From the NCBI GenBank assembly GCA_016201205.1, contig JACQDF010000127.1, positions 1 to 38,845 on the forward strand: a stretch of 38,845 nt of DNA, in the 5' to 3' direction. The stretch is from Acidobacteriota bacterium. Lineage in GTDB: Bacteria > Acidobacteriota > Terriglobia > Bryobacterales > Bryobacteraceae. Position numbers and translations under genes: made by a program. The notes beneath the pieces are model-generated. The model was not told the origin of the DNA. It saw only the letters and a list, made by a program, of their open reading frames with translations, and ran no database searches. Positions within the stretch are counted from its first letter, which is position 1, and each line of letters starts with the position of its first letter. This document shows positions 8,332 through 26,450 of this stretch, in pieces.

Positions 8332-8402
8332 GAAGGATGAACTTCAGCCATTGTCCCATTGGCCGGGAGAAGAAGACAATTGCTGATAAGCTATCCAGTG
8401 CT

Positions 8403-9689
8403 ATGTACACTCTGAGCCGCCGCCACTTTCTCGCCGGCACCGCCGGGCTCGCCGCCGCCTGGACTCTGGAGCAATCGCAGATCCTCAAGGCGATGCCGCA
8501 GGCCGAATCGGTGTTCGGCAAAGTCAAAATCCGCGATGTCGAGACGGCCACCATCCAGATGAATTATCCGGCGCACCTGGTCAAGATCACCACCGACCAG
8601 GGCATCTCCGGATACGGGGAGGCGTACAACGGGGCGGGCATCGTGGACCTGGTGCACCACGCAAAACAGTACGTCCTCGGCCAGGATCCTCTGCAAGTCG
8701 AGTATCTCTGGAGCCGCATGATGGAAGCGACCTCGGGCCATGGCTCGAACGCCGGCTCGACCGTGTCGGCGATCGCGGGCATCGAAAGCGCTTTGTGGGA
8801 CCTGGCCGGCAAGATCCTCAAAGTGCCGGTCTTTGTGCTGCTCGGCGGCAAATACCGCGACAAGCTGCTTGCCTATCACGACACCGGCTCGCCGAAAACC
8901 GCCGATCCCAAACCGTGGATCGAAGAGGCGCTGGCATCCAAAGCATACGGGTTCAAAGCGATGAAATTCGATCTGGACTGGGAGTCTCGCAACCAGGGCG
9001 TTTCCGGCAGAACGCCCTACAAGTATCGGCGCGAAGTCTGGAATCGAGTGATTACAGCCGAAGAGATGCGCCAATGGTACAAGATCCTGGAATCCATCCT
9101 GAGCGCGCTCGGGGCGGGCTACGACGTGGGTGTCGATCTGCACTGGAATTACAACACGCGGGATGCGTTGCGCTTTGCGCAGGAGGTGGAGCCGCTGAAG
9201 CTTTGGTTTCTTGAAGACCCCGTTCCCCCGGAGAACGCGGATGCTTTGAAGCGCATCACCGATGCCACCAGGACACCCATTCTCACCGGCGAGAACCTGT
9301 ACACGCGCCACGGCTTCCGCCCGTTCATCGAGAAGCAGGCGTGCGACATCATCCAGCCCGATCCGCAAAAATGCGGCGGCCTGCTCGAGACCAAGCGCAT
9401 CGCCGACATGGCGGATCTGTACTACATCACCTTCGCCTGCCACAACATGTGCACTCCGGTGGGGACATACGCCTGCGCGCAGGTTTGCGCCGCGATCCGC
9501 TCCTTTGTAGCGCTCGAGAGCGACAGTATCGAGATCCCGTGGTGGAAGGACATGGTCGCCAACGACGGCGGCAAGTTCTATCCCGGCGGCTGGTTCACGC
9601 TGCCCAATAAGCCTGGCCTTGGCTTCGAGTTGAATGAAGAAGTGTGCAGGCAGCACCTGGCGGCTGGCACGCGCTGGTTCCGAAGCTAA
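8403..9689 (+). CDS. Tat-exported enolase-superfamily enzyme (mandelate racemase/sugar-acid dehydratase type)
   Basis: 428 residues. The N-terminus TLSRRHFLAGTAGLAAAW is a twin-arginine signal, so the enzyme folds in the cytoplasm and acts in the periplasm. The rest is the enolase superfamily: an N-terminal capping domain, then a TIM barrel with metal ligands in VDLHWN (Asp), FLEDPVPPEN (Glu) and ILTGENLY (Glu). The late motif CHNMCTPVG supplies a His, as in galactonate/mannonate-type acid-sugar dehydratases. The substrate is probably an aldonic or other alpha-hydroxy acid. ATG at 8403 is preferred because it places the RR motif at residues 6-7; an in-frame start at 8337 would bury it. Periplasmic members of this superfamily are unusual but recurrent in Solibacter-like genomes. 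Confidence 0.83.
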   Translation: MYTLSRRHFLAGTAGLAAAWTLEQSQILKAMPQAESVFGKVKIRDVETATIQMNYPAHLVKITTDQGISGYGEAYNGAGIVDLVHHAKQYVLGQDPLQVEYLWSRMMEATSGHGSNAGSTVSAIAGIESALWDLAGKILKVPVFVLLGGKYRDKLLAYHDTGSPKTADPKPWIEEALASKAYGFKAMKFDLDWESRNQGVSGRTPYKYRREVWNRVITAEEMRQWYKILESILSALGAGYDVGVDLHWNYNTRDALRFAQEVEPLKLWFLEDPVPPENADALKRITDATRTPILTGENLYTRHGFRPFIEKQACDIIQPDPQKCGGLLETKRIADMADLYYITFACHNMCTPVGTYACAQVCAAIRSFVALESDSIEIPWWKDMVANDGGKFYPGGWFTLPNKPGLGFELNEEVCRQHLAAGTRWFRS

Positions 9690-21349: not shown

Positions 21350-21937
21350 CTAGGTGATCCTCTTCCATTTCTTGAGAAGATTTTGCAGCTCGATGTACAT
21401 CGAGTCTCCCGCTTCTTCCTGGCTTCTCCTTTCTTTTTCCACCCAATCTTTGAAGTTTCTCCAAAGCCCCACCAAGACTTCTTCCATATAGTCTTTGATC
21501 AGGCCCTCGTCCGCGCGGTCTTCCCTCACGGCCAGCGCCGCTTCCTCGGCGAAATCCAGCAAAGCGACAATTTTTCGCCGCGTGTCCATGTCGGTGGGGA
21601 GTACGAGCTTCCCGCCCTTCTTTTCGCAGGCGTAGTCGACCGCATTCATGCTTCCCGACTTCACTTTGGCGAAGATGTCTTTCGAATCCGCCAGATCCTT
21701 GGTCTGCCAGCGCGCGCAGAGGCTCTCCGCCCTCTCGGCCCGCTTCTGATCCAGCCCGCTCAAGTGGCTGTAGAGCACGAATGCGCCACCAACGATCGTT
21801 GCGCCAAAGACGATTGTCTTTTCCCAACTTGCCGCTACGTGGTGGTAAGCCATCAACAGAATTCCTTCAATAGGCACAAAGATGCCAAGAGAAATCCAAA
21901 TCGCTGGAATTGCGGGGGGCTGATATTTTTTCGCCAT
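21350..21937 (-). CDS. Small membrane protein, DUF4760-like
   Basis: 195 residues. Two transmembrane helices lie at the N-terminus (AIWISLGIFVPIEGILLMAY and KTIVFGATIVGGAFVLYSHL). A mostly helical, charged cytoplasmic part follows, with KIVALLDFAEEAALAVREDR and VGLWRNFKDWVEKERRSQEE, which resembles DUF4760 proteins. The function is unknown. Base composition is visibly lower in GC than the surroundings, and the gene stands alone between gltD (convergent) and the 22105 gene (divergent), so horizontal acquisition is plausible. The stop overlaps an eight-codon frame on the other strand. Confidence 0.65.
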   Translation of the reverse strand: MAKKYQPPAIPAIWISLGIFVPIEGILLMAYHHVAASWEKTIVFGATIVGGAFVLYSHLSGLDQKRAERAESLCARWQTKDLADSKDIFAKVKSGSMNAVDYACEKKGGKLVLPTDMDTRRKIVALLDFAEEAALAVREDRADEGLIKDYMEEVLVGLWRNFKDWVEKERRSQEEAGDSMYIELQNLLKKWKRIT

Positions 21938-22104: not shown

Positions 22105-23346
22105 ATGAGGATCCGATCCGTTCGCGCGCACCTGCTCTCGTATCCGCTCCGGGATCCCCCGAAGCTGGCCTACTACGGCGGCGAGCGTATGATTCTGAAG
22201 CGGGACGCGATGCTGGTGCGAATCGAATCCGACAGCGGCGTCGTGGGCTACGGTCCGGGAGCGGCGAGTGAGCAATGGAAATCGCGCATCGAAGGGGAAA
22301 TCGCCCCATTCCTGGCCGGCCGTGTGGCGGCGGATGCGGATGCGCTGCGGATTCAGTTCTTCCAGCACGCCGGCCAGGATGCCGAGATGCAGAAGATCTA
22401 CTGCGCAGTCGAGGTGGCGCTCTATGACTTGATCGGCAAGCTGAAAGGCGTCCCTGTCTCGGAGCTGCTGGGCGGGCGGGTCCGCGACCGCATCCGCCTC
22501 TATGGCAGCGCAGGCATGTATATGCCGCCGGAAGGCTACGCCGCCGAGGCCGCGCTGGCAAATGAGTTGGGCTTCAAGGCTTACAAGATGCGGCCGGGGA
22601 TCGGGCTGGAAGGCGACCTGGAAGCGGTTCGGCGGATGCGGGACGCCACCGGCGGCGGCTTCGAGCTGATGGTGGACGCGCACACCTGGTGGCGCATGGG
22701 GGACCGCAGCTACACCCCGGAGACCGTCGAGCGGCTCGCACAACAAATGAGCGAGTACGACATCACCTGGCTGGAAGAGCCGCTTCCACCGGATGACCAT
22801 GAAGCCTACCGGCGGCTGCGCGAAAAGGAAATCGTACCGCTGGCCAGCGGCGAGCATGAGTCCGGCGAGGAGGGTTTCCTCGATCTGCTGAACGGCCCTT
22901 GTGTCGATTACGTGCAGATGGACGTCGTCTGCCAGGGCGGCTATAGCCTGGGCCGGCGCCTGTTCAGCGAGCTGGGCCGCGCGGGGATGCGTTTTGCATT
23001 CCACTCCTGGGGCACTGCCCTCGAAGTGATGGCGGCGGCGCAGCTAGGCGTCTGCTGGCCGGAAGCTGTGGTCGAGTGGCTCGAGTATCCCTGCTACTCG
23101 GCGCCCGAGCACAAGTTCATGTACGCGTTTCCGCTGGCGGCGGAGATCGTGAAAGAGCCGCTCGAGATTGTGAACGGGGATCTGGTGGTGCCCGCAAAAC
23201 CGGGTCTCGGAGTCGAGGTGGATGAATCCGTCCTCGAGCGGTACCCCTGGATCCCGGGGCCCTGGTCGTTCTTCAAGCTCTTCTCCCCGCCGGAGACCTT
23301 CGCCGTGATCAGCGATCATAGCGTAAAGTGGACGGAGAAGGGCTGA
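22105..23346 (+). CDS. Enolase-superfamily enzyme (mandelate racemase/muconate lactonizing type)
   Basis: 413 residues without a signal peptide, so cytoplasmic. The N-terminal capping domain ends in VSELLGG. The barrel shows AYKMRPG (candidate catalytic Lys), LMVDAHTWW (Asp), TWLEEPLPPDD (Glu), PLASGEHESG (Glu) and FAFHSWGTAL (His), matching acid-sugar dehydratase-like members. The substrate is unknown. TATACT at 22089-22094 may be its -10. The stop TGA shares its last base with the ATG of the deacetylase gene (TGATG), so the two are coupled. It is the first gene of the deacetylase-ACP-ketosynthase operon. Confidence 0.83.
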   Translation: MRIRSVRAHLLSYPLRDPPKLAYYGGERMILKRDAMLVRIESDSGVVGYGPGAASEQWKSRIEGEIAPFLAGRVAADADALRIQFFQHAGQDAEMQKIYCAVEVALYDLIGKLKGVPVSELLGGRVRDRIRLYGSAGMYMPPEGYAAEAALANELGFKAYKMRPGIGLEGDLEAVRRMRDATGGGFELMVDAHTWWRMGDRSYTPETVERLAQQMSEYDITWLEEPLPPDDHEAYRRLREKEIVPLASGEHESGEEGFLDLLNGPCVDYVQMDVVCQGGYSLGRRLFSELGRAGMRFAFHSWGTALEVMAAAQLGVCWPEAVVEWLEYPCYSAPEHKFMYAFPLAAEIVKEPLEIVNGDLVVPAKPGLGVEVDESVLERYPWIPGPWSFFKLFSPPETFAVISDHSVKWTEKG

Positions 23347-24065
23347 TGCTGATTCCCGAAATCGCGTACGCGGGCGCGGCGGTGGCCGCGGGCGCCATGA
23401 CATGGGCTGTGCGCGGGCGCAGCGCGTGTGTGTTCGGCGCCTCGGTTCATCGGGGGCCGCGCGATCATAAGGCGATTGCGCTCACGTTCGATGACGGACC
23501 CAGCGAATCGACGCCTCAGTTGCTCGATGTGCTCGACGGCGAAGGGGCCAGGTGCACGTTTTTTCAGGTTGGCCGGAATGTCGAGCGCCTGCCTGAAATC
23601 GCGAAGAGCGTATTGGCCCGTGGACATGAGATCGGCAACCACACGTATTCGCATGCCCCTCTTTATCTGCGCCCTGCCCAATTCATCGCCGATGAAATCT
23701 TCCTGGCGCAGGACGTGATGTACAAGGTGACGGGGCTCGCGCCGTCGCTGTTCCGCGCTCCCTATGGCGCCCGCTGGTTTGGTTTGCGGCGCGTGCAGGA
23801 GCACTTCGGATTGCTCGGCGTCATGTGGACGGTGATTGCGCGGGACTGGAAACTGGATGCTCAGGGAATCCATCAGCGCATCAAGCGCGGCGTGGAGAAC
23901 GGCGCCATCATCTGCCTCCACGATGGCCGAGAGGTGCAGCCGAATCCGGAGATCCGGGCGACGATCGAAGCAGTGAAGCGACTCGTGCCGGAGCTCCGCG
24001 AGCGCGGATTCGAGCTTGTCACGGTGAGCGACCTTTTATGCCCGAAAGCATCCTCGAACGCGTGA
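23346..24065 (+). CDS. NodB-type polysaccharide deacetylase
   Basis: 239 residues. An N-terminal hydrophobic helix (EIAYAGAAVAAGAMTWAV) anchors or exports the protein. The NodB homology domain has all expected motifs: AIALTFDDGPSESTPQLLDV (metal Asp and catalytic Asp), GHEIGNHTYSHAPL (HxxxH), LFRAPYGARWFG and IICLHDGREVQ (catalytic His). Such enzymes remove N-acetyl groups from chitooligosaccharides, peptidoglycan or other glycans. The start ATG 23346 overlaps the upstream stop; it overlaps the ACP gene by 28 bases. Context (ACP, ketosynthase) points to a lipo-saccharide or modified glycan rather than housekeeping peptidoglycan deacetylation. Confidence 0.87.
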   Translation: MLIPEIAYAGAAVAAGAMTWAVRGRSACVFGASVHRGPRDHKAIALTFDDGPSESTPQLLDVLDGEGARCTFFQVGRNVERLPEIAKSVLARGHEIGNHTYSHAPLYLRPAQFIADEIFLAQDVMYKVTGLAPSLFRAPYGARWFGLRRVQEHFGLLGVMWTVIARDWKLDAQGIHQRIKRGVENGAIICLHDGREVQPNPEIRATIEAVKRLVPELRERGFELVTVSDLLCPKASSNA

Positions 24066-24295
24066 TTCGCGTCATCGCCTCCGCGCAGCACATGCCGCCG
24101 GAGGAGATCCACCCCGGGAGCACGTTCGAGGAGCTGGGCATCGATTCGCTCGACGGGATCAATATCGTGTTCGCGCTCGAAAATGAATTCGACGTGAACA
24201 TCCCGGATGAGGCGGCTAAGTCGATTCGCGGCGTCGGCGATATTGTCCAAGGCATCGACAAGCTGCTGGCTGAAAAGCAGGGGCCGTCCGGATGA
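24038..24295 (+). CDS. Acyl carrier protein
   Basis: 85 residues starting at ATG 24038 (MPESILERVIRVIASAQHMP). The phosphopantetheine attachment site is FEELGIDSLDG (Ser near residue 37), followed by ALENEFDVNIPDEAAKSIRG, the acidic helix II-III pattern of ACPs. It is a dedicated rather than the fatty-acid-synthesis ACP, judged by its location: it overlaps the deacetylase gene by 28 bases and the ketosynthase start by 4 bases (ATGA). It probably carries the acyl chain made by the neighbouring ketosynthase, as NodF does for NodE. Confidence 0.9.
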   Translation: MPESILERVIRVIASAQHMPPEEIHPGSTFEELGIDSLDGINIVFALENEFDVNIPDEAAKSIRGVGDIVQGIDKLLAEKQGPSG

Positions 24296-25506
24296 GCCCG
24301 CGGCGCGTGGCCGTCACGGGAATCGGCGTGTTCTGCGCCTCCGGCAAGAACCGGCGCCGGTTCTGGGAAGCTCTGACAAGCGGCCGCAGCGCGATCGGCC
24401 CTATCGAAGGATTCGGCGAGCTGCGGTTTCCCAACGGCGCGCAAATCCGCGATTACTGTCCGCTGGATCAGTTCAGCGAAAAGGAGGCGGACTTTCTCGA
24501 CCCCTTTGCGCAATACGCGCTGATCGCGGCGCGAGAGGCCGTTGCGGCGGCGGGCATCCAATGGACCGCGCAGTTGCGCCGGCAAACGGGTGTGATCACC
24601 GGCTCTTGCGTGGGCGGCAAGCTGACCGAGGACCGGGCGTTCCGCGAATTGTATGAAGAGAAGAAGACGCGGTTCCATCCCATGATCATTCCGCGAACGA
24701 TGGCCAATGCCGGAGCGAGCGCGATCACTATGGAGTTCGGGCTGACGGGAGCGTCGTTCACGATCTCGACGGCGTGCTCGTCCGCAAACCACTCGCTGGC
24801 GCAGGCATTCTGGCTGGTGCGGCAAGGATCCCTCGAGATGGCCATTGCCGGCGGCAGCGAAGCGCCTTTCACCACCGCGCATCTGAAGGCGTGGGAAGCG
24901 CTGCGCGTGATGTCGCCTGATACATGCCGGCCGTTTTCCAAAGACCGCCGGGGCATGATTCTGGGCGAAGGAGCGGCCATGCTGGTGCTGGAGCCGCTGG
25001 CGGCGGCCAAAGCCCGTGGCGCGACAGTGTACGCGGAGTTGGCAGGCGCGGGCATGAATGCGGATGCGCATCACATCACCCAGCCGTCCGTCGAGGGAGC
25101 GGCCCGCGCGATGGAACTGGCGCTTGCCGACGGCGGTGTTCCCGCGGATGCCGTCGGCTACATCAATGCACACGGTACCGGAACGCCCGCCAACGACCCT
25201 GTCGAGTCGAAAGCGATCCGGCGGTTGTTCGGCGCGCATGCGGACCGGATTGCGGTCAGCTCGACCAAGTCGATGCACGGGCACGGACTCGGGGCAGCGG
25301 GGGCGATCGAGGCCGCGGCCACCGTCTCGGCTCTCGACACGGGTGTGCTTCCTCCCACGGCGAATTACACAACGCCGGACCCGGAATGCGATCTGGACGT
25401 GATTCCGAACGAAGCCAGGCGTGCCGAGATTGAGTACGCTCTTTCGAATTCCTTCGCCTTTGGAGGCTTGAACGCGGTGCTCGCTTTTCGCCGCTACAAT
25501 CCTTGA
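24292..25506 (+). CDS. Beta-ketoacyl-ACP synthase, NodE/FabF-like
   Basis: 404 residues of the KAS II fold, condensing malonyl-ACP with acyl-ACP. The catalytic triad is visible: Cys in ISTACSSANHS, His in INAHGTGTPANDP and His in STKSMHGHGLGAAGA. Several stretches recall NodE in particular: LKAWEALRVMSPDTCRPFS, GMNADAHHIT, LPPTANYTTPDPECDLDV and ALSNSFAFGGLNAVLAF. Several of these also occur in other FabF-like enzymes. It is coupled to the ACP gene by ATGA overlap. It is probably a specialised chain-elongating enzyme making a particular acyl group for a saccharide or secondary metabolite. Confidence 0.9.
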   Translation: MSPRRVAVTGIGVFCASGKNRRRFWEALTSGRSAIGPIEGFGELRFPNGAQIRDYCPLDQFSEKEADFLDPFAQYALIAAREAVAAAGIQWTAQLRRQTGVITGSCVGGKLTEDRAFRELYEEKKTRFHPMIIPRTMANAGASAITMEFGLTGASFTISTACSSANHSLAQAFWLVRQGSLEMAIAGGSEAPFTTAHLKAWEALRVMSPDTCRPFSKDRRGMILGEGAAMLVLEPLAAAKARGATVYAELAGAGMNADAHHITQPSVEGAARAMELALADGGVPADAVGYINAHGTGTPANDPVESKAIRRLFGAHADRIAVSSTKSMHGHGLGAAGAIEAAATVSALDTGVLPPTANYTTPDPECDLDVIPNEARRAEIEYALSNSFAFGGLNAVLAFRRYNP

Positions 25507-25509
25507 AGC

Positions 25510-26450
25510 ATGACTCTGGCCCGCGCGCTGTGGCTCTTGCTCGCGTTCCTGGGCGCGGTGGCCTGGTGGATGATTGTCTGCCTGGGCATCTGGCATTTCG
25601 TGGTGGTGGCGGCCGGGCTGTACGAGGCAAGCACGGGCAGCCCATTGCCCGGGCTTGGCAGTGTTGCTGGGGGCTGGCGTGCTGGCTCTACGCTGTGCTG
25701 AACCGCTTTCTTACCCGCCGGGCGCGGTTGTACGCCGATTTCGCCAAGGCGGTGATTGAAAAGGCGGCGTCGATACTCGACTTGAACGAGCGGAAGCGGT
25801 TCCTGGAGCGGGAGCTGGCTACGTGGTTCGGCTTCAGACAGGTGCTCGTGTCGCAGGACGCGGAACTGACGCGGTTTGCCCAAGAGCAAGGCGGCGATGT
25901 GTTTCATGTAAGCCGCAGTCGCTCGAGACGTGCCGGCTGGTGGAAGAGAAGATTGGGCTGGAACGGCTGGCAAGCCTCGGCCAGGCTGCGGCAACGATCG
26001 CGCAACTGATGCGGGAAGATCCGGCCCTCGCCCGGAGTCATGGCGAGGATCTGGCGTTCATTGCCGGCGAGGCGGACCGTCTGGACGGCTCCGTGCGCCA
26101 GCTTCTCGGGTTCGCACGGCAGAAGCCGCCTCTGGACGAAGAGGTGGACTTGTCCGCGTTGCTGGAGTCGGCGGCGGCCGCGGTGACCCGGCAAACGGAG
26201 AAGGACGGCGTTGGCGTGTCGGCGCAGGCAGAGCCGGGCATCGTGGCTCTCGGTCGAGGATGACGGGCCGGGGATCCCACCCGAACTGCGGGACAGGGTA
26301 TTCGAGCCGTTTTTCACAACCAAGCCAAAGGGCGCCGGACTGGGACTGGCGATTGTGCGAAGGAACGCCAGGGCGATGGGCGGAGATGCATGGATTGAGG
26401 GCGGCGAGGGAGGCGGGACGCGAGTGGTGGTGGCCGTGGGAGCCCCATAG
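25510..26450 (+). pseudogene. Sensor histidine kinase, broken by frameshifts and internal deletions
   Basis: The gene starts three bases after the ketosynthase stop with two hydrophobic helices (TLARALWLLLAFLGAVAWWM, IWHFVVVAAGLYEAS). Around 25660 the frame shifts to one with WLYAVLNRFLTRRARLYADF and ELATWFGFRQVLVSQDAEL. Near 25910 it shifts again to LVEEKIGLERLASLGQAAAT. There the H-box is absent: ATIA joins QLMREDP, where HEIRNPL should stand, so the phospho-accepting His is gone. After EPGIVAL the N-box of the ATPase is deleted with a frame change, and the rest reads [20 protein letters not shown] then [17 protein letters not shown] (G boxes). It cannot encode a working kinase. Confidence 0.85.

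What the first reader, a model, noticed from the sequence alone, without database searches (positions are those of the whole stretch)
22105..25506. NodB + ACP + NodE-like ketosynthase operon outside rhizobia
Four genes overlap by a few bases each: enolase-superfamily enzyme, NodB-type deacetylase with all metal and catalytic motifs, dedicated ACP, and a ketosynthase whose segments (LKAWEALRVMSPDTCRPFS, PPTANYTTPDPECDLDV) recall NodE more than ordinary FabF. In rhizobia nodB, nodF and nodE deacetylate a chitin oligomer and make its special acyl chain. No NodC chitin synthase or NodA acyltransferase is in the window, so this may be a different lipo-saccharide route, or an ancestral or parallel one. 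The enolase-like enzyme would be a novel component. The NodE resemblance is from memory of the family, not a computed alignment.
Basis: partly seen in the sequence, partly recalled or inferred. Interest (0 to 1): 0.75.

Follow-up and report, generated by a model that had tools for sequence, protein, structure and literature searches.

The report
NodE-related acyl-chain operon in Solibacteraceae
Acidobacteria of one family carry a conserved set of genes whose chain-building enzyme is a cousin of NodE, the rhizobial enzyme that tailors the fatty chain of nodulation signals, but the rest of that signalling pathway was not found, so it probably tailors an unknown lipid of the bacterium's own envelope.

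Summary
The four genes are real and overlap head to tail: an MR-type enolase-superfamily enzyme (ENO), a CE4 deacetylase (DA), an acyl carrier protein (ACP) and a ketosynthase (KS). The remembered NodE likeness holds under computation: in an 83-row tree the KS shares a clade with five NodE (44 rows, 100/99), and AU tests reject joining it to FabF (p 0.0008) or to the aryl-polyene ApeO group (p 0.0012). The unit is conserved: 70 of 121 family genomes have DA and KS within 800 bp, 21 of them with ENO too, in otherwise little-conserved surroundings.

The Nod pathway itself is not supported: DA fails the NodB model and tree, ACP is not NodF-like, no NodA was found, NodC only below cut-off. Elsewhere related ACP-KS pairs adjoin lipid acyltransferases: LpxL-type plus desaturase in five of six Pyrinomonadaceae-type loci, LpxD-like in four of four non-rhizobial alphaproteobacterial loci. 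Best reading: a NodFE-type pair makes a special acyl chain for an amine that the membrane-tethered DA uncovers, giving an unknown N-acylated glycolipid. The acyltransferase and ENO's step are not identified, and nothing here shows the product.

The parts
22105..23346 (+). ENO: mandelate racemase-type enolase-superfamily enzyme, 413 aa; acid-sugar dehydratase/epimerase-like
   Evidence: Pfam MR_MLE_N/C; best solved relative by sequence galactonate dehydratase 5olc, E 4.5e-45; ligand and dyad motifs (VDAH, WLEEP, SGEHE, QMD, FHSWGT) line up, second Lys of KxK is Arg (motif roles recalled); no NCBIfam model reaches its cut-off
23346..24065 (+). DA: CE4 polysaccharide-deacetylase-type enzyme with an N-terminal hydrophobic segment (ORF open from GTG 23328)
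   Evidence: Pfam PF01522, E 3e-32; catalytic residues in 30 of 30 relatives; N-terminal hydrophobic stretch, basic residues after it
24038..24295 (+). ACP: acyl carrier protein, 85 aa, phosphopantetheine site DSL
   Evidence: Pfam PP-binding, E 4.3e-12
24292..25506 (+). KS: NodE-clade beta-ketoacyl-ACP synthase, 404 aa, with C162, H294, K326 and H331 by alignment
   Evidence: Pfam ketoacyl-synt N/C; trees; aligned active-site stretches
24883..24939 (+). KS stretch LKAWEALRVMSPDTCRPFS (residues 198-216) with A200, W201, V206, C212 and a deletion of six residues against FabF
   Evidence: signature columns, 35 clade rows against 22 FabF rows; aligned stretch

Best explanation
The operon is an acyl-tailoring unit of the NodFE kind, working for a lipid of the bacterium's own envelope. 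The ACP and the NodE-clade KS borrow the ordinary fatty-acid enzymes (malonyl transfer, ketoreduction, dehydration) to build an acyl chain unlike the bulk fatty acids. DA, tethered to the inner membrane and probably facing the cytoplasm, removes an acetyl group from an N-acetylated amino sugar or similar precursor. The freed amine is then acylated from the ACP by an acyltransferase encoded elsewhere. ENO acts on, or supplies, a sugar-acid part of the precursor. Shown: gene order, conservation, KS clade, residues. Inferred: chain chemistry, amine acceptor, DA topology, ENO substrate, and that all four act in one pathway.
For: KS lies in a 44-row clade with five NodE (100/99), FabF being a separate clade of 29 (97/89); AU tests reject joining the acidobacterial KS to FabF (p 0.0008) or to the ApeO group (p 0.0012). 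Like two NodE and a Paracoccus relative it scores 417-446 bits on the FabF model, under the cut-off 493.75, while a family housekeeping FabF scores 654.8. NodEF are needed for alpha,beta-unsaturated or polyunsaturated and longer chains (passages in PMC9048898 and PMC5080398). The genome keeps a separate FabF-type KS at C15. Related ACP-KS pairs adjoin acyltransferases: Lip_A_acyltrans with a divergent FA_desaturase in 5 of 6 f21/Pyrinomonadaceae-type loci, LpxD-like hexapeptide proteins in 4 of 4 non-rhizobial alphaproteobacterial loci fetched. Adjacent within 800 bp: DA-KS in 70 of 121, ENO-DA in 37 of 121, ENO-KS without DA between in 3; no further gene family in more than 8 of 41 neighbourhoods. 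Catalytic residues of DA and KS kept.
Against: No acyltransferase or glycosyltransferase recurs next to the operon in this family. The genes can part: 22 of 121 genomes have DA but no KS, 3 KS but no DA, 16 have ENO-DA without an adjacent KS, 41 lack ENO. In the tree without outgroups an AU test does not reject the acidobacterial KS branching off nearer to FabF than the sister group does (p 0.10), so closeness to NodE within the 44-row clade rests on branch support only (98-100/87-97). One lone ApeO row jumped into the acidobacterial clade in one tree; with four ApeO-type rows it left. ApeO shares the deletion, the Cys and AFGG with this clade, though not W201 or H329. Identity alone does not separate NodE (46-49%) from the nearest FabF-clade rows (up to 46%). 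DA topology rests on charge counts. A galactonate-transporter-like MFS gene near the operon genes in 7 loci, ENO being present in 4 of these, would also fit catabolism.
Confidence: 0.5

Rival explanations
1. The ACP-KS pair tailors acyl chains for an ordinary membrane lipid or lipid A (O-acylation), and DA and ENO are separate envelope or sugar enzymes that merely share the operon. No N-acylation of a freed amine takes place.
For: In f21/Pyrinomonadaceae-type loci the pair stands with an LpxL-type acyltransferase and a desaturase, without DA or ENO. In the phylum sample (297 genomes, 3 of them of this family) KS is in 17, ENO in 1, DA at 50% identity or more only in the 3 of this family. The own genome has one Lip_A_acyltrans, not linked to the operon.
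Against: DA is kept just before ACP-KS in 70 of 121 genomes in little-conserved surroundings. A CE4 gene also lies 0.8 kb upstream of a related ACP-KS in 1 of the 6 acidobacterial loci of the sister group (L115).
Confidence: 0.27
2. ENO, DA and a neighbouring MFS transporter salvage N-acetylated sugar acids, and ACP-KS joined the operon secondarily.
For: ENO's nearest solved relative is galactonate dehydratase. ENO-DA occurs without KS in the genome in 9 of 121 and away from KS in 7 more. An MFS gene whose best (sub-cut-off) model is a galactonate transporter is nearby in L076, L081, L097, L101, L102, L104 and L110 (model tested for L101 and L081).
Against: ENO also stands with ACP-KS, DA elsewhere, in 3 genomes. 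DA has an N-terminal hydrophobic segment. CE4 enzymes generally act on polymers or oligomers (established knowledge, recalled).
Confidence: 0.13
3. The genome makes a true lipo-chitooligosaccharide of the Nod-factor kind.
For: KS clade; CE4 enzyme and ACP in the same operon.
Against: No NodA match, with a positive control that rang. NodC-model hits weak and non-specific. DA is not NodB, ACP is not NodF-like. The genome is 94.3% complete, so a missed gene is possible.
Confidence: 0.04
4. The KS is simply a second primary-metabolism FabF, or part of an aryl-polyene or polyketide pathway.
For: NCBIfam's broad subfamily model PRK07314 (beta-ketoacyl-ACP synthase II) accepts it, as it does NodE. 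ApeO shares the deletion, Cys and AFGG.
Against: Trees and AU tests. It fails the FabF equivalog model as NodE does. The models that ApeO and ApeR pass (PRK09185, PRK09116) give the window KS 256.9 and 285.5 bits against cut-offs of 407 and 470. The other three genes of the unit include no ketoreductase, dehydratase or chain-length factor.
Confidence: 0.06

Closest known systems
Rhizobial NodFE (with NodB and NodA), lipo-chitooligosaccharide synthesis
   Same: KS of one clade, 46-49% identical to five NodE, shared signature residues; ACP gene directly before KS; CE4 deacetylase in the operon
   Different: No NodA found; NodC only below cut-off; DA is not NodB; ACP is not NodF-like; ENO added; conserved over one acidobacterial family (three genes in 70, all four in 21 of 121 genomes)
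FA_desaturase - ACP - KS - Lip_A_acyltrans loci of Pyrinomonadaceae-type acidobacteria (L111, L216, L255-L257)
   Same: Orthologous ACP-KS pair, KS 59-61% identical
   Different: An acyltransferase and a desaturase take the place of ENO and DA; I know of no functional study of these loci (recall)
LpxD-like hexapeptide acyltransferase - ACP - KS loci of Paracoccaceae and an alphaproteobacterial MAG (L117, L118, L121, L189)
   Same: KS of the same wider clade with ACP, beside a putative N-acyltransferase of an amino sugar
   Different: No CE4 and no ENO match in the stretches fetched
CE4 de-N-acetylases (PdaB, PgdA, NodB)
   Same: Family and catalytic residues
   Different: Own clade (97/99), first Asp of motif 4 absent, N-terminal hydrophobic segment
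Mandelate racemase-type acid-sugar dehydratases (galactonate dehydratase 5olc)
   Same: Domain layout, metal-ligand and His-Asp dyad motifs
   Different: Second Lys of KxK is Arg; no NCBIfam cut-off reached

Membership tests
NodE | Falls in one clade with NodE, apart from FabF | tested here: met
   44-row clade with 5 NodE 100/99; AU p 0.0008 against joining FabF. Inside it the window is in an acidobacterial subclade, not in the NodE subclade; nearness to NodE rather than to the sister group is not settled by AU (p 0.10)
NodE | Stands with nodF in a nod cluster | tested here: not met
   ACP not NodF-like; no NodA, NodC only below cut-off
NodE | Makes polyunsaturated or long acyl chains for a saccharide | not testable with these tools
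   Needs chemistry
NodB (TIGR04243) | Reaches the equivalog cut-off of 240 bits | tested here: not met
   125.1 bits; true NodB 326.1
NodB (TIGR04243) | Groups with NodB in a CE4 tree | tested here: not met
   Family DA are one clade of 12 (97/99) without the 3 NodB; deep branches unresolved and bootstrap not settled
CE4 polysaccharide deacetylase | Metal triad, catalytic base, Arg, Asp-Trp and His motifs | tested here: met
   30 of 30 for D, D, H, H, R, D, H; 29 of 30 for W (roles recalled)
NodF | NodF-type ACP sequence | tested here: not met
   Pairwise identity 28% (26/92) to 38% (23/60) with four NodF against 45% (29/64) with E. coli AcpP; ordinary ACP models give 66 bits to the window ACP and at most 35 to the one NodF tested. 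Short sequence, no tree made
Lipo-chitooligosaccharide pathway | NodA acyltransferase and NodC chitin synthase present | tested here: not met
   0 NodA; 13 weak NodC-model hits, best 39.7 against 550 bits; genome 94.3% complete
FabF (TIGR03150) | Equivalog cut-off 493.75 bits | tested here: not met
   441.6 bits; family FabF 654.8
Aryl-polyene ketosynthase (ApeO, ApeR; gene names recalled) | Groups with ApeO or ApeR, or passes the models they pass | tested here: not met
   AU p 0.0012 against joining four ApeO-type rows; PRK09185 and PRK09116 under cut-off. A lone ApeO row did fall inside
Mandelate racemase subgroup acid-sugar dehydratase | Asp/Glu/Glu metal ligands, KxK or KxR, Asp-His dyad | tested here: met
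   Read from the alignment with 5olc; substrate not testable

The most novel reading that the evidence does not exclude
Solibacteraceae run a chromosomal counterpart of the Nod-factor logic: a CE4 enzyme uncovers an amine, and a NodE-clade KS with its own ACP builds the special chain put on it. The product would be an undescribed N-acylated saccharolipid. Rhizobial NodFE would be a late, symbiotic use of an old acyl-tailoring module that in other bacteria serves envelope lipids.
Probability: 0.33. Interest if true: 0.8.

Novelty: new variant of a known kind. Interest (0 to 1): 0.6.

Why it matters
NodE and NodF help decide which legume a rhizobium can nodulate (established knowledge), yet where these genes came from is, as far as I know, unsettled. 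The tree places rhizobial NodE on a long branch inside a clade whose other sampled members are acidobacteria and mostly non-rhizobial proteobacteria, several of them next to lipid acyltransferases. That gives a testable source for NodFE: an envelope-lipid module. It also points to an unknown lipid in Solibacteraceae, with a short gene list to knock out.

Tried and rejected
Plain FabF duplicate: rejected by tree, AU test and equivalog score. Aryl-polyene KS: rejected after a check; a lone, very long ApeO row sat at the root and inside the acidobacterial clade, and only with three more ApeO-type rows did it settle outside. DA as NodB: rejected. True Nod-factor pathway: no NodA, NodC only sub-threshold. 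ACP as NodF: no support.

AU tests: the first one (p 0.0009) is withdrawn, because seven rows that the tree puts inside FabF had been left out of the held group. Repeated with them and without outgroups it gives p 0.10; with outgroups p 0.0008. All groups were named after a tree had been seen.

A shared gene downstream of KS: looked for in 34 KS loci, with 10 downstream genes chosen by length and strand scanned; nothing recurs there except an MFS gene, so the operon probably ends at KS. Upstream argC-argB-GNAT and an unassigned gene (weak MoeA likeness, E 0.46) recur in up to 8 of 41 loci; taken as old synteny. Promoter and terminator scans gave no more than shuffles. Literature: searches found no paper; one broad review (listing only); one search listed 12 of 132 (titles and starts of abstracts), nothing on this gene set; one search listed two, of which I read the passages found for given terms. 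PMC5080398 calls NodE the carrier protein and NodF the synthase, the reverse of PMC9048898; I follow the latter.

Choices before counts: KS 55% and DA 45% identity thresholds were set after seeing the gap in the listings. Of 139 KS sequences gathered (hits under 200 aligned residues or with a stop dropped, L217 among them) 78 rows went into the first tree, with 11 of 31 fetched family KS loci; one search left out ApeO, ApeR, FabB, L202 and L190; one search left out L190. One search dropped hits under 140 residues. Structure prediction and fold search were not used.
Full report
The observation. The window lies in contig C226 of a 7.0-Mb, 94% complete genome. The four genes are all on the + strand: ENO 22105-23346, DA (ORF from GTG 23328; the ATG at 23346 that overlaps the ENO stop is the likelier start) to 24065, ACP 24038-24295, KS 24292-25506. 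Pfam assigns MR_MLE, Polysacc_deac_1, PP-binding and ketoacyl-synt. Upstream lie the genes for both glutamate synthase subunits, then 856 bases in which no ORF passed my codon-position filter (a minus-strand ORF 21350-21937 just misses it and was not tested). Downstream lies what looks like a broken histidine kinase.

Which bacteria.

The ketosynthase. Against the window KS, five NodE are 45.8-48.8% identical, the genome's own FabF-type KS at C15 40.5%, E. coli FabF 39.8%. NodE is so called here from its place beside nod genes and, for S. meliloti pSymA, which has no annotation in this collection, from recall. Some rows that the trees put among FabF reach 46%, so identity alone proves nothing. 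In the fullest tree, 83 rows with four ApeO-type KS and other outgroups, the window is in a subclade of 23 (Solibacteraceae, other acidobacteria, one Rhizobium multihospitium; 100/99). This joins a proteobacterial group with all five NodE, a Mesorhizobium relative, Paracoccaceae, a Burkholderiaceae MAG and an alphaproteobacterial MAG (34 rows, 98/87). Ten further acidobacterial, beta- and gammaproteobacterial KS complete a clade of 44 (100/99). FabF is a separate clade of 29 (97/89); FabB, ApeR, the genome's third KS (L202), the ApeO group (100/98) and three other KS lie outside the 44-row clade. Holding the acidobacterial KS together with FabF is rejected (p-AU 0.0008), and with the ApeO group too (p 0.0012).

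What is less firm. In earlier trees the same 34-35 rows had 100/96 and 99/96. In the tree without outgroups, an AU test does not reject the acidobacterial KS branching off nearer FabF than the ten-row sister group (p 0.10). So membership of the 44-row clade is firm, the order inside it less so. A lone ApeO row was placed inside the acidobacterial clade in one tree, which I take as a long-branch effect because four such rows together leave it. The rows were gathered by similarity to the window KS or to ApeO, so unsampled paralogues could still fall between.

Independent signs. On NCBI's FabF model the window KS scores 441.6 bits, two NodE 417.1 and 428.4, a Paracoccus relative 445.5, all under the cut-off 493.75; a FabF of the same family scores 654.8. 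Fourteen alignment columns separate the 35 clade rows (state in at least 85%) from 22 FabF rows (another state in at least 75%): among them W201, C212, four columns of a six-residue deletion between these two, H329 beside the active-site His, and A389, where the FabF loop reads GFGG and this clade AFGG. ApeO shares the deletion, the Cys and AFGG, but not W201 or H329, so the last two are the better markers. The Cys-His-His-Lys set is intact (C162, H294, H331, K326).

Conservation. In 121 genomes of the family (76 genera) a KS orthologue (55% or more) is found in 96, a DA orthologue (45% or more) in 115, an ENO orthologue (E 1e-100 or better) in 80. DA and KS lie on one strand within 800 bp in 70; of the 71 pairs within 6 kb, 69 have a gap of 230-331 bp, the size of the ACP gene, and in 20 of 20 fetched the ACP is there. 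Architectures: ENO-DA-ACP-KS 21; DA-ACP-KS with ENO elsewhere 33; DA-ACP-KS without ENO 16; ENO-DA with KS elsewhere 7; ENO-DA without KS 9; ENO-ACP-KS with DA elsewhere 3; none adjacent 32. Some of the last are cut by contig ends. In 40 fetched neighbourhoods plus the window no further gene family, by a simple gene caller and blastp clustering, occurs in more than 8 of 41. In a phylum sample of 297 genomes, 3 of them of this family, the KS orthologue (E 1e-112 or better) is in 17, over six families; ENO only in the window genome; DA at 50% or more only in the three of this family. So ACP-KS is the wider module; ENO and DA look like additions of this family.

What stands beside related ACP-KS pairs. 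Five of six loci of f21 and a named Pyrinomonadaceae record have a divergent FA_desaturase before and a Lip_A_acyltrans (LpxL-type) directly after ACP-KS (L111, L216, L255, L256, L257; not L260). In the four non-rhizobial alphaproteobacterial loci fetched (L117, L118, L121, L189) an LpxD-like hexapeptide protein directly precedes ACP-KS; other Paracoccus and Pseudorhodobacter hits were not looked at. In rhizobia NodA, and in one record NodB and NodC, are near. In one gp13 acidobacterium of the ten-row sister group, ACP-KS is followed by an MGDG-synthase-like glycosyltransferase, an AMP-binding protein, a HAD phosphatase and an aminotransferase, with a CE4 gene 0.8 kb upstream (L115); the CE4 was not seen in the other five acidobacterial loci of that group. 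X. sacchari has a GNAT, two aminotransferases and a HAD phosphatase around. The common theme is acyl transfer and amine chemistry. Against it: L112, L213, L218, L220 and L222, also with ACP-KS, showed unrelated or unassigned neighbours among the genes scanned.

The deacetylase. It scores 125 bits on the NodB model and 124 on PdaB, both far under cut-off; a true NodB scores 326. In a tree of 33 CE4 proteins the family's DA form one clade (97/99), NodB lying elsewhere with unresolved deep branches. D, D, H, H, R, D and H of the motifs are kept in 30 of 30, but not NodB's first Asp of motif 4. In all 30 the most hydrophobic 17-residue stretch ahead of the catalytic domain has a mean hydropathy of 1.18 or more. 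The 15 residues after it carry a net positive charge in 28 of 30 (not L103, L107) and more than the 15 before it in 23 of 30; the start codons are uncertain, which blurs the upstream side. By the positive-inside rule this suggests a catalytic domain on the cytoplasmic side; this is inference.

ENO and ACP. ENO lines up with galactonate dehydratase 5olc through the metal ligands and the Asp-His dyad, with Arg for the second Lys of KxK; no NCBIfam model reaches cut-off. ACP is an ordinary-looking carrier with the DSL site, not closer to NodF than to AcpP, and only 32% identical to an ACP-like stretch near the genome's FabF.

Missing parts. NodA has no match in the genome, while the same search rings three times on a Rhizobium tropici Sym plasmid. 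NodC-model matches are generic. One Lip_A_acyltrans exists, unlinked. Three full-length KS were found: C15 (FabF), C226 (this one) and C196, besides four short partial matches.

Mechanism. NodE and NodF are needed for alpha,beta-unsaturated or polyunsaturated and longer acyl chains, which NodA transfers to the amine uncovered by NodB (passages in PMC9048898 and PMC5080398). The shared clade, the intact active sites and the acyltransferase neighbours elsewhere make it likely (about 0.8, my estimate) that this ACP-KS pair also makes a special acyl chain for a lipid. That the chain goes on an amine uncovered by DA, and that ENO belongs to the same pathway, is a weaker inference from gene order; hence 0.5 for the whole. 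No product is known.

Novelty. Searches for this gene set or for NodE/NodF in acidobacteria found no relevant paper in the library held here; most subscription journals and preprints are not in it. The parts are known families; the combination and the clade membership are new to me, so I rate it a new variant of a known kind.

Noticed in passing
window 25510-26450 (+): Directly downstream of KS lies what looks like a broken histidine kinase: an HATPase_c fragment at 26211-26450; two other pieces tested in neighbouring frames gave no Pfam match.
   Followed up: partly
L113 6001-7206 (Rhizobium multihospitium HAMBI 2975): A rhizobium carries a KS 58% identical to the window KS that falls inside the acidobacterial clade, with a weak ACP match on the opposite strand and an Nramp gene nearby: looks like a transfer separate from NodE.
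   Followed up: partly
L111, L216, L255, L256, L257: Conserved FA_desaturase / ACP / KS / Lip_A_acyltrans cluster in Pyrinomonadaceae-type genomes; a candidate for an unusual unsaturated acyl chain on lipid A or another lipid.
   Followed up: partly
L115 4098-12063: A gp13-type acidobacterium has CE4, response regulator, ACP, KS, MGDG-synthase-like glycosyltransferase, AMP-binding protein, HAD phosphatase and class-III aminotransferase together; sister loci L114, L116, L119 were not annotated.
   Followed up: partly
L190 (Xanthomonas sacchari plasmid): ACP-KS of the same wider clade among aminotransferases, GNAT, arginase-family and HAD genes on a 509-kb plasmid; an uncharacterised cluster.
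   Followed up: no
L072, L083, L085, L086, L088, L092, L100, L102: A protein of about 323 aa without a Pfam or NCBIfam match (weak MoeA likeness, E 0.46) recurs upstream of the ENO/DA/ACP genes in 8 of 41 loci, mostly next to arginine genes.
   Followed up: partly
window 8337-9689 (+): A second MR_MLE enolase-superfamily gene with a weak Tat-signal match, only 25% identical to ENO.
   Followed up: no
G000:C196 (L202): Third KS of the genome, a long branch outside the FabF and NodE clades; function not looked at.
   Followed up: no
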